Source of the DNA: a virus
Reading direction: 5' to 3' (one strand)
Virus record (IMG/VR): IMGVR_UViG_3300012030_000004
Coordinates: 1 to 63,839 of that record
DNA length: 63,839 nucleotides
The notes under the pieces are model-generated. The model was not told the origin of the DNA, searched no databases, and was given only the letters and a program-made list of their open reading frames with translations. Position 1 is the first letter of the stretch. The number at the start of each line of letters is the position of its first letter. Positions 59,876-62,723 of the stretch are shown piece after piece. Made by a program: the position numbers and the translations under genes.

Positions 59876-60576
59876 CAGAAATTCAGTTCTCAGATATTGC
59901 CGTAAATCTCATTGGCTCTATGGGATCTGACGCTTCTATTGTGCAGGCGGCTCGTGTTTCTCTTTCCGGAGAAAACGAGGTTGAAATGACCTCAAAGGAA
60001 GAGGGTCTTATCAATTATTTGATGAGAAATAAGCACGGGTCTCCCTTTGAACACACTACTCTCAAGTTCTATGTCAAAGCCCCCATCTTTGTGTTCCGTG
60101 AATTCCATAGACACAGGATCGGATTCAGTTACAATGAGATGAGTGGCCGATACACCAAGCTGAAACCAGAGTTCTATCTTCCTTCTTGGGATAGGCCTTT
60201 GATCAATGTGGGGACTAGTGCCTCCCCTGATTTTGCTCCTGGGGATGAGTACCTCGTCACCAAACTTCGAGAGACTCTCGCTTCTCAGTATCGAAGTGCT
60301 TGGAATGATTATGAAGAGCTTATTGCTATGGGGGTTGCCAACGAGGTAGCCAGGGTGCTCCTTCCTGTGGGAATCATGAGCCAGATGTATGTCACGTGTA
60401 ATGTTCGGTCCATGATGAGCTTCCTGTCTCTGCGCACCCAGGATGACCGCGCGGCTCATGTCTCGAAGCCTCAGCTGGAGATCCAGATGGTGGCTCGTCA
60501 GATGGAGGAGGCTTTTGCTGGGCTCTTCCCTGTCACCTACGCCAGCTACAACACCAACCAGCGTGTGGCTCCGTAG
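59872..60576 (+). CDS. thyX: Flavin-dependent thymidylate synthase
   Basis: 234 residues, TTG 59872 overlapping the kinase stop. Carries the ThyX motif RHRIGFSYNEMSGRY at about 80-94, preceded by SPFEHTTLKFYVKAPIFVFR, and a C-terminal RSMMSFLSLRTQDDRAAHVS with the FAD/dUMP-binding residues. Makes dTMP from dUMP using FAD and methylenetetrahydrofolate. With the kinase before it, this ensures thymidine nucleotides for phage DNA. Confidence 0.92.
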   Translation: MTEIQFSDIAVNLIGSMGSDASIVQAARVSLSGENEVEMTSKEEGLINYLMRNKHGSPFEHTTLKFYVKAPIFVFREFHRHRIGFSYNEMSGRYTKLKPEFYLPSWDRPLINVGTSASPDFAPGDEYLVTKLRETLASQYRSAWNDYEELIAMGVANEVARVLLPVGIMSQMYVTCNVRSMMSFLSLRTQDDRAAHVSKPQLEIQMVARQMEEAFAGLFPVTYASYNTNQRVAP

Positions 60577-60577
60577 A

Positions 60578-60588
60578 GGCCGATAGTA
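60578..60588 (+). promoter_or_regulatory. GGCCGATAGTA element upstream of Y RNA locus
   Basis: Exact copy of the dispersed element, 2 bp after the thyX stop and 29 bp before a sigma-70-type -35. The Y RNA locus therefore seems to have both an early/constitutive and a late-type promoter. Confidence 0.6.
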
Positions 60589-60616
60589 GAAAGTTCAAAA
60601 TTTTTGCCCTCTGAGC

Positions 60617-60645
60617 TTGACAAGGGCCCGGAGGGTCTGTAGTGT
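60617..60645 (+). promoter_or_regulatory. Sigma-70-type promoter of the Y RNA/Ro locus
   Basis: TTGACA-17-TAGTGT. Transcription would begin about 60652, just before Y1 (60674), and could run through Y1, Y2, Y3 and the Ro gene. Confidence 0.7.
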
Positions 60646-60673
60646 CATCAACATAACTTAACAGCGCGAGATT

Positions 60674-60757
60674 TACACGAGCCGAAGAGGCAGTCGGTTA
60701 TCATTCAAACTGAAATTATGCCCTCGGGCTATCCGACCCTCACCCCATGTTCGTGTG
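60674..60757 (+). ncRNA. Y RNA 1 (short form, no tRNA-like module)
   Basis: Lower stem 60675-60682 pairs with 60749-60756 (8 bp, one G-U). Then comes the conserved unpaired CGAA facing an ACCCCAU strand, a 4-bp helix (60687-60690 with 60738-60741), a CA bulge, a 5-bp helix (60693-60697 with 60733-60737) and the loop start UUAUC. This is the Ro-binding core of Y RNAs (human: CCGAAGG ... GAGUUAUC). The remaining loop holds only a small GCC/GGC hairpin. Stems match Y2 and Y3 in position but not in sequence. Confidence 0.85.
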
Positions 60758-60764
60758 TTTCTTA

Positions 60765-60875
60765 GAATGAGCCGAAGAGGCATCGGTTATCCCACTGAAA
60801 ATGAGAACCTGGCGGTTCGATTCCGTCATTAGTTGGAACAGGTTATTTTTCCGATCTTCACCCCCATGCTCATTC
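60765..60875 (+). ncRNA. Y RNA 2 (with a T-arm-like branch)
   Basis: Perfect 8-bp lower stem (60765-60772 with 60868-60875), unpaired CGAA facing ACCCCCAU, helix 60777-60780 with 60856-60859, one bulged C, helix 60782-60786 with 60851-60855, then GGUUAUC. The distal part forms an extended stem (60798-60802 with 60845-60849; 60806-60810 with 60840-60844) carrying a tRNA T-arm-like hairpin (60811-60827, 5-bp stem, 7-nt loop UUCGAUU). No D arm or acceptor is seen, so only part of a tRNA-like module is present. Confidence 0.85.
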
Positions 60876-60879
60876 ACTC

Positions 60880-60922
60880 GCCTCTCTTGGAGGTTCATCG
60901 GGTTCGACTCCCGATGGAGGCA
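60880..60922 (+). ncRNA. tRNA acceptor/T-arm minihelix between Y2 and Y3
   Basis: 6-bp acceptor-like helix (60880-60885 with 60916-60921, last pair U-G) stacked on a 6-bp T stem (60897-60902 with 60910-60915) with the 7-nt loop UUCGACU: 12 bp in total, the length of a tRNA acceptor/T stack. No D or anticodon arm; 11 nt link the strands. No CCA encoded. It could be a tRNA relic or a mark recognised by RNase P and RNase Z to separate Y2 from Y3 (inference). Confidence 0.5.
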
Positions 60923-60924
60923 CA

Positions 60925-61058
60925 AAAACTGAACCGAAGAAGTATTGGTTATCCATGCTAAGGAAGAGGTCACGGGTTCGAATCCCGTCATCAGACCTAG
61001 TCTGATGTAGCTCAGAGGCAGAGCGCTTAAACCCAATCTTCACCCCATGTTCAGTTTT
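60925..61058 (+). ncRNA. Y RNA 3 with circularly permuted tRNA-like module (YrlA-type)
   Basis: Perfect 10-bp lower stem (60925-60934 with 61049-61058), unpaired CGAA facing ACCCCAU, helix 60939-60942 with 61038-61041, bulged U, helix 60944-60948 with 61033-61037, then GGUUAUC: the Ro-binding core. The loop holds tRNA parts in permuted order: variable-like GAGGUC, T arm 60972-60988 (loop UUCGAAU), acceptor 3' strand 60989-60995, CCUAG, acceptor 5' strand 61001-61007 (7 perfect pairs), UA, and D arm 61010-61024 (GCUC/GAGC, loop AGAGGCA). A short CUUA/UAAG helix joins it to the Y stem where an anticodon arm would be. This is the layout of bacterial YrlA RNAs. Confidence 0.92.
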
Positions 61059-61060
61059 AC

Positions 61061-61085
61061 CACATGTTCAGAAATACTGAACCGA
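61061..61085 (+). other. Y-like hairpin/remnant just before the Ro gene
   Basis: CACATGTTCAG and ACTGAACCGA copy the 3' and 5' ends of Y3's lower stem in reversed order and form a 6-bp hairpin (61066-61071 with 61077-61082, loop AAAUA). It may be the scar of a lost fourth Y RNA, or a leader element that competes with Y3 pairing or is bound by Ro for self-control. Confidence 0.45.
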
Positions 61086-61103
61086 GAGAAAGGATGAACA
61101 CCT

Positions 61104-62723
61104 ATGGCTAACAATAGCCTCAAGTCCGTCACAACCCGACCCGGAATGACGGCCACTCCTCAGACGCAGAAGGCGGCTAAGGGGCAGAAGGAGAACAACG
61201 CAGGCGGCTACACGTTCACTGTCTCAGACATGGACCGAGCCAAGCGTTTCTTGATCCTTGGATCTGACTCGTCGTTCTACCAGAGCGGCCAGAAGCTCTC
61301 CAAGGACAACGCCAAGAACCTGATCAAGCTTGCGAAGTCTGACCGTGCCCAGGAGCTCACTGACCTGATTGTGGAGATCTCCACTCAGGGTCGTGCGGCC
61401 AAGCAGGACCCCGGTCTGTTTGCACTGGCCGTCGTGGCTTCCCATGGCGCGACTGAGGACAAGCAGTACGCTCTGTCCAAGCTCTCTCAGGTAGCCCGTA
61501 CCGGATCCTCGCTGTTCACGTTCATCACTTACGTGGAGCAGTTCCGAGGGTGGGGGCGTGCCCTGACCAAGGCGGTTTCTTCTTGGTACACGGAGAAGTC
61601 TGTGGACAAGCTCGCCTACCAGACGGTGAAGTACCGTCAGCGTGATGGCTGGACTCACCGGGACGTGTTCCGCAAGGCGCACCCTCAGAAGGGCAAGAAC
61701 GGAATCTCCGAAGGAGAGGATGCTCGTGCTTTTGAGGCGCTGGGTGAGTGGATTCTCCGAGGTGAGTTGTTGGAGAACACTCCTAAGCTTGTTCGCGGCT
61801 TCACGATGGCCCAGACTGCTTCTAAGTCTGAGCTTCCTGCTCTGATCAGGGAGTACGGACTGTCGTGGGAGATGCTTCCTACCGAGGCTCTGAACGACAA
61901 GAAGGTCTGGGAGACGTTGCTTCAGGGCAATGTTCCTCTCGGGGCCCTGTTGCGTCAGCTTCCTCGTTTGACGAAGCTCGGCATCGTCGCGCCTATGGGT
62001 GGAAAGACTGCTGAGATCGCCAAGAGGATCACTGATCCTGAGGAGCTCAAGCGTGCCCGTATCCACCCCTTGAACCTTCTGGTTGCCCAGAAGACCTACG
62101 GGGCGGGGCACAGCCTCCGGGGCAATTCCTCCTGGGCCCCCAACCAGAAGATCGTGGACGCTCTTGACAAGGCCTTCTACCTGTCCTTCAAGACGGTCGA
62201 GCCCGCTGGCAAGCGCACTCTGATTGGGTTGGATGTCTCCGGCTCGATGGGCTGGGCTTCAGTGGCCGGGGTTCCTCTCATGCCTTCCGAGGCAGGAGCG
62301 GCCCTTGCGTTGGTCATTGCCAACACGGAGCCTGAGGCGCACATCTTCGGATTTGCGGACACCTTCCGTGAGTTGGGCCTCTCCCCAGGGATGCGACTTG
62401 ACCAGGCCCTGCGGCAGACAAGTTTAAGGACGTTCGGAGGCACGGACTGTGCTCAGGCCATCGAGTACGCTCGTACTCACAAGTTGGAAGTGGACACGTT
62501 CCTTGTGATCACAGACAACGAAACCTACGGGGGTCGGAGTCACCCACACGAGGCCTTGCAGAGGTACCGTCGAGAGACTGGCATCGATGCGAAGCTCATC
62601 GTGCTGGCGACTACTGCTTCCGAGTTCAGCCTCGCGGATCCCAGTGATGGTGGGATGCTGGACATCGCTGGGTTCGACTCAGCAGTTCCTCAGCTGATCA
62701 ACGAGTTCTCTCGGGGACTCTGA
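61104..62723 (+). CDS. rsr: Ro60-like TROVE-domain RNA-binding protein (Rsr)
   Basis: 539 residues, the size of animal Ro60 and bacterial Rsr. ATG 61104 with GAAAGGA upstream. Residues about 35-365 are the TROVE HEAT-repeat ring: DMDRAKRFLILGSDSSFYQS, ALAVVASHGATEDKQYALSK, FTFITYVEQFRGWGRALTKA, WYTEKSVDKLAYQTVKYRQR and GWTHRDVFRKAHP, all hallmark Ro segments. Residues about 370-539 are a VWA domain with an intact MIDAS: DVSGSMG (Asp377), GGTDC (Thr447) and ITDNE (Asp471). Ro binds misfolded RNA 3' ends in its ring and Y RNA on its outer surface; in bacteria Y RNA tethers Ro to polynucleotide phosphorylase. Directly downstream of three Y RNAs. Confidence 0.95.
   Translation: MANNSLKSVTTRPGMTATPQTQKAAKGQKENNAGGYTFTVSDMDRAKRFLILGSDSSFYQSGQKLSKDNAKNLIKLAKSDRAQELTDLIVEISTQGRAAKQDPGLFALAVVASHGATEDKQYALSKLSQVARTGSSLFTFITYVEQFRGWGRALTKAVSSWYTEKSVDKLAYQTVKYRQRDGWTHRDVFRKAHPQKGKNGISEGEDARAFEALGEWILRGELLENTPKLVRGFTMAQTASKSELPALIREYGLSWEMLPTEALNDKKVWETLLQGNVPLGALLRQLPRLTKLGIVAPMGGKTAEIAKRITDPEELKRARIHPLNLLVAQKTYGAGHSLRGNSSWAPNQKIVDALDKAFYLSFKTVEPAGKRTLIGLDVSGSMGWASVAGVPLMPSEAGAALALVIANTEPEAHIFGFADTFRELGLSPGMRLDQALRQTSLRTFGGTDCAQAIEYARTHKLEVDTFLVITDNETYGGRSHPHEALQRYRRETGIDAKLIVLATTASEFSLADPSDGGMLDIAGFDSAVPQLINEFSRGL

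What the first reader, a model, noticed from the sequence alone, without database searches (positions are those of the whole stretch)
60951..61040. Y3 contains a circularly permuted tRNA
T arm, acceptor 3' strand, a CCUAG turn, acceptor 5' strand, U8-A9-like UA and a canonical D arm (GCUCAGAGGCAGAGC) follow one another, so the tRNA is opened at the anticodon and rejoined through the acceptor end. This matches the known YrlA tRNA mimic. In a phage it could bind host tRNA enzymes, PNPase or the ribosome, or be cut by RNase P at the acceptor.
Basis: partly seen in the sequence, partly recalled or inferred. Interest (0 to 1): 0.85.

Follow-up and report, generated by a model that had tools for sequence, protein, structure and literature searches.

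The report
Phage Y RNA holding permuted tRNA
Next to its Ro60 gene this phage encodes a small RNA that carries a whole tRNA cut open and rejoined in a different place, apparently with its anticodon loop kept; tRNA-mimicking Y RNAs are known, but the kept and fast-changing anticodon looks new and can be tested.

Summary
Y3 (60925-61058) is a Y RNA just upstream of a Ro60 gene (61104-62723). It contains T arm, acceptor 3' strand, CUA turn, acceptor 5' strand, UA and D arm in circularly permuted order. A covariance model of 39 related domains, window excluded, finds it as the only match in the window (85.5 bits, E 3e-21).

This is the known YrlA type of tRNA mimic, so the permutation is not new. 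Across 93 phage and 73 bacterial domains a 7-nt anticodon-like loop with U33 often sits at exact tRNA spacing, and outer anticodon-stem pairs covary using the strand after the D arm. So the break lies inside the anticodon stem (about 28|29). Loops follow the tRNA tendency 'G37 if G36' (25/31 versus 1/64), and 34-36 vary faster than other unpaired positions. A partial replicate agrees.

My open-access searches showed no description of this anticodon arm; the two key papers were not readable here. In Y3 itself its thermodynamic support is weak. Function (tether, decoy or bait) is inferred. New variant of a known kind.

The parts
60925..61058 (+). Y3: whole Y RNA (approximate ends); Ro-type stem 60925-60948 with 61033-61058
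   Evidence: RNA fold, 0 of 200 shuffles fold as well; CCGAAG..GGTTATC Ro-type motif at 60934
60947..61032 (+). permuted tRNA domain as matched by model R1 (window not in the model)
   Evidence: 85.5 bits, E 3.2e-21, only match in window
60952..60954 (+). anticodon stem 5' strand, nt 29-31 (UCC)
   Evidence: pairs with 60962-60964; probability 0.48-0.55; class-wide 65 of 93 phage domains, shuffle 13.3 of 94
60955..60961 (+). anticodon-like loop, nt 32-38: A-U33-GCU-A37-A38
   Evidence: 7 nt with U33 at tRNA spacing
60962..60966 (+). anticodon stem 3' strand, nt 39-43 (GGAAG)
   Evidence: 39-41 pair with 60952-60954; 42-43 with 61026-61027
60967..60971 (+). variable loop, nt 44-48 (AGGUC)
   Evidence: 5 nt, canonical length
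60972..60988 (+). T arm, nt 49-65
60989..60996 (+). acceptor 3' strand, nt 66-72 plus C73
   Evidence: pairs with 61000-61007 at 0.93-0.97
60997..60999 (+). CUA turn joining the former 3' and 5' ends
   Evidence: Rfam YrlA consensus also has cua
61000..61007 (+). G-1 plus acceptor 5' strand, nt 1-7 (tRNA +1 would be 61001)
61008..61009 (+). U8-A9
   Evidence: read (the later descriptor requires the U, so its frequency there is not evidence)
61010..61024 (+). D arm, nt 10-25 (loop AGAGGCA with GG)
61025..61027 (+). nt 26 (G) and anticodon stem 5' strand nt 27-28 (CU); U61028 could also take over pair 29-41
   Evidence: 27-43 and 28-42: 97.7% of cells paired in 44 rows, several pair types
60670..60763 (+). 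Y1: short Y RNA without tRNA body (approximate ends)
   Evidence: Ro-type motif at 60682; fold z -1.7, 8 of 200 shuffles as good; 7-nt loop hairpin 60701-60713
60765..60878 (+). Y2: Y RNA with a T arm (60811-60827) but no acceptor stem (approximate ends)
   Evidence: Ro-type motif at 60772; fold z -0.9, 26 of 200 shuffles as good; T arm read
61104..62723 (+). Ro60 gene, 539 aa (TROVE plus Ro60 vWA)
   Evidence: Pfam TROVE 4.3e-46, vWA_Ro60 4.7e-55

Best explanation
Y3 is a phage Y RNA of the YrlA type. Its outer stem (60925-60948 with 61033-61058) is the Ro60-binding part, and the partner is the Ro60 made from the next gene. On that stem sits a complete but endless tRNA. The order is: Ro stem, nt 29-31, anticodon loop 32-38, nt 39-48, T arm, acceptor 3' strand, CUA turn, acceptor 5' strand, D arm, nt 26-28, back to the Ro stem. 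Because the former ends are fused and the new ends lie in the anticodon stem, it cannot be charged or used as a tRNA unless it is cut, yet it can show elbow, acceptor helix and an anticodon loop to proteins that recognise tRNA. Shown: sequence order, covariation, tRNA-like loop rules across the class. Inferred: Ro60 binding, tRNA-shaped folding, and use as a tether that brings a tRNA-binding partner (PNPase is the described one for YrlA) to Ro60.
For: Ro60 gene directly downstream and three Ro-type motifs before it. At least one permuted domain in 74 of 104 phage and 58 of 80 bacterial Ro loci, copies of a contig not removed. Acceptor pairing tested without selecting for it: 82/98 and 65/100, against 9.7 and 9.2 shuffled. 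Anticodon arm, one real tRNA dropped: inner stem 65/93 phage and 41/73 bacterial (shuffle 13.3 of 94 and 10.1 of 73); U33 60/65 and 35/41; both outer pairs by the post-D strand 60/65 and 35/41, against 29.3 and 9.8 with partners dealt anew, and 3/65 and 0/41 by the upstream strand. 44-row alignment: covariation 0.632, shuffles 0.154, slides at most 0.138. G37 with G36 25/31, without 1/64, p 3e-16. Un-permuted sequences read as proper tRNAs 83/93 and 66/73, native order 0 and 0, chimeras 28.7 and 23.3, anticodon arm shuffled 42.4 and 36.1. New domains: 7-nt loop 25/51 (shuffle 7.2), outer pairs 23/25 (12.6), G37 with G36 5/5 versus 1/15.
Against: 28 of 93 phage, 32 of 73 bacterial and 26 of 51 further domains lack the strict anticodon arm. 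In bacteria a rival register, loop of 10 nt, also scores (27 of 73 against 35 of 73 for 7 nt). In Y3 the inner anticodon stem has probability only 0.48-0.55 and the outer pairs 0.01; forcing all of them costs 3.9 kcal/mol, under rules that ignore tertiary contacts and coaxial stacking. The exact break is uncertain: the post-D strand can also form 29-41 in 35/65 and 16/41. A32, as in Y3, is rare in the reference tRNAs (6 of 298) but occurs in 17 of 65 phage Y loops. A GCU triplet on a body with a short variable loop does not fit a real tRNA-Ser. No expression or binding data.
Confidence: 0.8

Rival explanations
1. Ordinary YrlA with only D, T and acceptor arms, opened at the anticodon. The 7-nt hairpin is a generic Y RNA loop next to the Ro motif and has nothing to do with anticodons.
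For: A published description lists D, T and acceptor arms (PMC8394870, passages). Short Y RNAs without a tRNA body also show the 7-nt loop (73 hairpins, 45 with U at the second place, of 185 sites). Thermodynamic support in Y3 itself is weak. A large minority of domains lacks the arm.
Against: Canonical spacing to the T stem; covarying 27-43 and 28-42 pairs formed with the post-D strand; G36-G37 tendency, repeated in new domains and weakly in the short Y RNAs (3/8 versus 2/37, p 0.03); 45 of 95 loops identical to a reference tRNA loop (19 of 56 distinct; controls mean 11.7 and 11.0, maxima 19 and 21).
Confidence: 0.13
2. A decoy or bait (a reading of function, compatible with the best explanation): the closed tRNA with a variable anticodon loop occupies or is cut by host tRNA-targeting nucleases, protecting phage and host tRNAs during infection.
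For: 34-36 differ far more than other unpaired positions among similar RNAs (13/30 versus 42/321; 224/333 versus 840/3623); prophage pairs differing only, or almost only, at nt 35; phage tRNAs are proposed to be shaped by anticodon nucleases (PMC10264068, abstract and passages); a competitive-inhibitor role was suggested for Salmonella YrlA (PMC7790460, passages).
Against: Similar RNAs stand at bacterial Ro60 loci, so it is not a phage-only device (prophages among them not excluded). Fragments of Salmonella YrlA were not detected when the RecA-dependent nuclease acted. No nuclease partner identified. Variation could be drift in a tolerant triplet; rows are related and not independent.
Confidence: 0.25
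3. A tRNA-array remnant: two neighbouring broken tRNA genes whose halves look like a permuted tRNA.
For: A T-arm minihelix and a T-arm-only Y2 lie beside it. Ordinary tRNA loci ring with the model, up to 52.8 bits and E 7e-12.
Against: Both acceptor strands pair 8 of 8; 85.5 bits against 52.8 for the best tRNA locus; Ro motif and outer stem; the layout recurs at Ro60 loci of phages and bacteria.
Confidence: 0.03
4. A precursor that RNase P and tRNA 3' enzymes open at the acceptor, giving a true acceptor end and a two-piece tRNA.
For: Full 7-bp acceptor with T stem of 5 bp; CCA at the exact 74-76 place in 6 of 82 phage and 2 of 65 bacterial segments that pass the pairing test.
Against: Y3 has CUA, not CCA, and an extra C73:G-1 pair; many relatives have tri- or tetraloops.
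Confidence: 0.06

Closest known systems
YrlA bacterial Y RNA (Rfam RF02553; structure 6CU1, Salmonella)
   Same: Permuted T arm - acceptor hairpin - UA - D arm, even the CUA turn of the consensus; Ro60 partner and Y stem as described in PMC8394870.
   Different: Y3 keeps an anticodon-like stem-loop and is open at about 28|29; 8-bp rather than the consensus 6-bp acceptor hairpin; scores 34.9 bits against a cut-off of 69. In 20 other Ro loci no RF02553 match reached that cut-off.
Mycobacteriophage Ro60 loci (for example LinStu, Sparky)
   Same: Ro60 gene with the same permuted domain next to it: LinStu 73.8 bits, Sparky 82.8 (Sparky is in the model).
   Different: Other triplets and acceptor sequences. 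Chen et al. 2014 is recalled as reporting phage Y RNAs; not readable here, but PMC12282133 (passages) cites it for mycobacteriophages.
Circularly permuted tRNA genes of algae (recalled, not looked up)
   Same: Same kind of permutation with all arms kept.
   Different: Those mature into working tRNAs; here the product is held in a Y RNA with joined acceptor ends.
Phage tRNAs with altered anticodon loops (PMC10264068, abstract and passages)
   Same: Phage-borne, anticodon loops under apparent pressure.
   Different: Those are ordinary tRNAs; Y3 has fused acceptor ends.

Membership tests
Y RNA (Ro60 partner) | gene next to a Ro60 ortholog | tested here: met
   Ro60 ORF starts 45 nt after the end of the Y3 outer stem
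Y RNA (Ro60 partner) | long stem with conserved Ro-contact motif | tested here: met
   CCGAAG..GGTTATC in Y1, Y2, Y3; stem folds. That this motif is the Ro contact is recalled from vertebrate Y RNAs
Y RNA (Ro60 partner) | bound by Ro60 in cells | not testable with these tools
   needs pull-down
YrlA | permuted T arm - acceptor - D arm | tested here: met
YrlA | reaches the Rfam RF02553 gathering score (a model cut-off, not a biological trait) | tested here: not met
   34.9 of 69 bits; below cut-off the model also rings in 7 of 14 control genomes; no RF02553 match at cut-off in 20 Ro loci. Hence filed as YrlA-type, outside the Rfam model
YrlA | pseudouridine in T loop and dihydrouridine in D loop | not testable with these tools
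   T loop UUCGAAU could carry it; the Y3 D loop AGAGGCA has no U, so dihydrouridine is not possible there
tRNA gene | linear cloverleaf | tested here: not met
   ARAGORN 0 in window
tRNA anticodon arm | 7-nt loop, U33, purine 37, G37 when G36 | tested here: met
   in the domains that have the arm; Y3 loop AUGCUAA fits except A32; stem support in Y3 alone is weak

The most novel reading that the evidence does not exclude
Phage and actinobacterial Ro60 particles display whole, endless tRNAs whose anticodons are kept decoding-like yet switch rapidly between relatives. They would be swappable tRNA baits that capture or jam enzymes that recognise anticodon loops (defence nucleases, toxins, modification enzymes), with short Y RNAs showing the anticodon stem-loop alone.
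Probability: 0.25. Interest if true: 0.88.

Novelty: new variant of a known kind. Interest (0 to 1): 0.62.

Why it matters
In the review I could read, YrlA is a tRNA mimic with D, T and acceptor arms. If many actinobacterial and phage members also keep a variable, decoding-like anticodon loop, the question 'what does the tRNA mimic bind?' becomes testable: candidates are enzymes that read anticodon loops, not only PNPase. It would also link Ro60 to tRNA damage and phage defence, and it explains why a tRNA finder places doubtful tRNA genes in phage Ro loci.

Tried and rejected
Chance: rejected. Tandem tRNA remnant: rejected, though 97 matches at E up to 1 in the 60 tRNA loci show that the model cross-reacts with tRNAs at lower scores. 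Opening between nt 26 and 27, with all five anticodon pairs in one hairpin, as I first thought: rejected, the upstream strand gives both outer pairs in 3/65 and 0/41. Promoter and terminator scan of 60500-61150: nothing on the + strand. Rfam at gathering score: nothing in the window. ARAGORN on un-permuted sequences is generous (about a third of chimeras are called), so I lean on pair statistics. 'Loops identical to reference tRNA loops' is only modest; that reference of 298 calls holds some genes more than once because its loci overlap. Match of triplet to tRNA body by isotype: not tested. Gene context was searched for 24 window proteins only: mostly replication, nucleotide and virion-type hits; no RNA ligase or RtcB among those 24.

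Dropped rows: L004, L005 (copies of the window; L010 also in most scripts), domains with an identical core, one minus-strand domain, domains with under 60 nt upstream. L099 4426, a real tRNA-Arg, was still; it was left out, and the report gives one search counts where they exist. The descriptor requires U8 and GG in the D loop. The 44 rows of A2 were chosen for variable loop 5, inner anticodon stem and U33, so only helix 2 is free of selection there. In one search, 64 domains already seen were dropped; the loci come from the same collection, in part the same contigs, so it is a partial replicate.

Full report
WHAT IS THERE. The window is an IMG/VR virus record of 63,839 bases. The 500 bases before its Ro60 gene (61104-62723; TROVE and Ro60 vWA domains) hold three copies of a Ro-type motif, CCGAAG..GGTTATC, at 60682, 60772 and 60934: Y1, Y2 and Y3. 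The T-loop-like pattern GGTTCRANNCC occurs six times in the window, three of them here; shuffles give 1.24 on average. The acceptor is the full seven pairs of a tRNA plus one. The Y3 stretch folds better than all of 200 shuffles; the tRNA part alone does not stand out as much (11 of 200 as good), nor do Y1 (8) and Y2 (26).

IS IT MORE THAN CHANCE. I collected Ro60 loci from named phages, IMG/VR contigs and bacterial genomes. A descriptor finds at least one permuted domain on the Ro60 strand in 74 of 104 phage and 58 of 80 bacterial loci, copies not removed. With only sequence motifs of the T loop and D-arm start as anchors, the stretch between them forms a hairpin of at least 5 bp, one mismatch allowed, in 82 of 98 phage and 65 of 100 bacterial segments; shuffled segments give 9.7 and 9.2. 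A covariance model of 39 domains without the window hits the window once, at 60947-61032, with 85.5 bits and E 3.2e-21. It also rings in ordinary tRNA loci (97 matches at E up to 1 in 60 loci), but at most with 52.8 bits. In six whole bacterial genomes the best hit, 66.7-92.3 bits, has the coordinates of the Ro locus. Of 20 named phage loci 9 score above 53 bits; 3 of those 9 are in the model, and in Sixama (L097) the domain lies downstream of Ro60.

THE ANTICODON ARM. Some relatives are called tRNA-Arg, -Thr or -Ile by ARAGORN because an anticodon-like hairpin stands before the T arm. In a table of loop length against variable-loop length the highest cell is 7 nt and 5 nt: 47 of 94 phage and 35 of 73 bacterial domains, shuffle 5.9 and 4.9; the next cells are 24 (7 nt, variable loop 4) in phages and 27 (10 nt, variable loop 5) in bacteria. 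Allowing a variable loop of 4 or 5 and dropping one real tRNA, the inner stem 29-31/39-41 is complete in 65/93 and 41/73 (shuffle 13.3 of 94 and 10.1 of 73). Of these, U33 is there in 60/65 and 35/41, A or G at 37 in 58/65 and 34/41. The outer pairs decide the topology: 27-43 and 28-42 both form with the strand after the D arm in 60/65 and 35/41 (29.3 and 9.8 with partners dealt anew), with the strand before the hairpin in only 3/65 and 0/41. So the chain is open at about 28|29 and the Ro stem enters there; since the post-D strand can also take pair 29-41 in 35/65 and 16/41, the junction may slide by a pair. In a 44-row alignment the two outer pairs, not used for selection, are 97.7% paired with AU, CG, GC and UA types; the whole structure has a covariation score of 0.632 against 0.154 in shuffles and at most 0.138 in slides. 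In Y3 alone, pair probabilities are 0.48-0.55 for the inner stem and 0.01 for the outer pairs, so the arm in Y3 rests on the class.

DECODING-LIKE LOOPS. Of 95 domains with inner stem and U33, G37 follows G36 in 25 of 31 and occurs in 1 of 64 without G36 (p 3e-16; distinct loops 14/20 and 1/36, p 9e-8). Reference tRNAs show the same tendency, 37/65 and 5/233. 45 of 95 loops are identical to a reference tRNA loop, 19 of 56 distinct, against 11-12 in controls whose maxima are 19 and 21: modest. Rejoined in tRNA order, 83 of 93 phage and 66 of 73 bacterial domains are called proper tRNAs; none is in native order; chimeras 28.7 and 23.3; anticodon arm shuffled 42.4 and 36.1. The window sequence reads as tRNA-Ser(GCU), although its body has a short variable loop, unlike a tRNA-Ser. 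Y3's A32 is unusual: 6 of 298 reference calls, 17 of 65 phage Y loops.

REPLICATION. Two further viral scans gave 143 new locus ids and, after dropping 64 domains seen before, 51 new ones. Loop of 7 nt with complete inner stem 25/51 (shuffle 7.2; other loop lengths 3-12), U33 20/25, both outer pairs 23/25 (12.6), G37 with G36 5/5 and without 1/15 (p 4e-4). About half the new domains lack the strict arm, so it is frequent, not universal.

FAST-CHANGING TRIPLET. Among row pairs at least 85% identical elsewhere, 34-36 differ at 13 of 30 places, other unpaired positions at 42 of 321; at 75-85% identity 224/333 and 840/3623. Five Cellulomonas loci (L134, L136, L139, L143, L144) show CGA, CCU, GUG, GUC and GUU in nearly the same RNA; an Actinomycetales MAG (L133) has GUC. 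Scanning IMG/VR with fixed flanks and a free stretch 34-38 (17 contigs) shows RNAs that differ over about 160 nt only at nt 35 (UGU versus UCU, L263 against seven others), and further pairs with that change among four differences (L251 and L252 against L255). Rows are related, so these counts are not independent events.

SHORT Y RNAS. At 185 Ro-motif sites without T loop or D-arm start, a 3-bp hairpin with 7-nt loop occurs 73 times, 45 with U second; other loop lengths from 4 to 10 give 24-48 and 5-15. Y1 of the window is one (loop UUCAAAC). This could mean that the anticodon stem-loop mimic is older or wider than the tRNA body, or that the loop is a general Y feature; the G36-G37 signal here is weak (3/8 versus 2/37, p 0.03).

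HOW IT MAY WORK. Published YrlA work, seen here only through passages of PMC8394870, PMC7790460, PMC11472068 and PMC12282133, gives Ro60 on the stem and PNPase on the tRNA-like part, with tRNA-type modifications. Y3 most likely does the same with the phage's Ro60. The kept anticodon loop suggests a partner that reads anticodon loops. A bait for tRNA nucleases is attractive in a phage (compare PMC10264068) but unproven, and bacterial Ro loci have similar RNAs.

NOVELTY. Searches of the open-access library: YrlA + tRNA, Y RNA/anticodon/Ro60/YrlA/Rsr (15 of 40 papers listed), Y RNA + anticodon + permuted, bacterial Y RNA + anticodon, and broader ones. In the passages I read, none states an anticodon arm in a bacterial Y RNA; most listed papers were not opened. 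The library lacks the primary papers, so prior description cannot be excluded. Y RNAs mimicking tRNA in phages are known; I recall this from the abstract of Chen et al. 2014. After the recount two confidences were moved slightly (best explanation 0.82 to 0.80, ordinary-YrlA rival 0.12 to 0.13), because of the sliding junction and the 10-nt register.

Noticed in passing
window 60792-60827: Y2 carries a tRNA-Phe-like loop CUGAAAA with a weak stem (two pairs) and a T arm (60811-60827), followed by AU-UA-GUUGGAAC: it looks like a YrlA that lost its acceptor hairpin and shrank its D arm.
   Followed up: partly
window 60880-60921: Between Y2 and Y3 lies a T-arm minihelix (GCCTC..T arm..GAGGC), like an unpermuted tRNA with D and anticodon arms deleted.
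   Followed up: no
L095 976-1052 and L098 1140-1348: The annotated tRNA-Arg of phage Magritte and a pseudo 'tRNA-OTHER' of phage Trina overlap permuted domains; they are probably misread YrlA RNAs. 19 ARAGORN calls in the loci (copies included) overlap such domains; at least L099 4378-4451 is a real tRNA.
   Followed up: partly
L001 1644, L022 1366, L024 1773, L032 1722, L048 1522, L095 1028; L161 2333, L172 68: CCA stands exactly at tRNA positions 74-76 inside the acceptor loop: 6 of 82 phage and 2 of 65 bacterial segments that pass the pairing test. Fits origin from tandem tRNA copies or opening by tRNA enzymes.
   Followed up: partly
L054, L062, L076, L095 upstream of Ro60: Several permuted domains in tandem in one locus, with different acceptors, D arms and triplets.
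   Followed up: no
L030 1718, L037 1704, L042 1796, L109 2339: Some permuted domains have 3-bp D stems with GAGYGGCCYAA loops, which resemble class II tRNAs as I recall them.
   Followed up: no
window 60740-61036 minus strand: A 98-aa antisense ORF over Y2 and Y3 is probably spurious; its GFEPVTSS stretch is antisense T-arm sequence.
   Followed up: no
L232 1429-1550, L190 1541-1668: Neighbouring ordinary tRNA genes score up to 52.8 bits with the permuted model: tandem tRNA duplication is a plausible source of YrlA.
   Followed up: no
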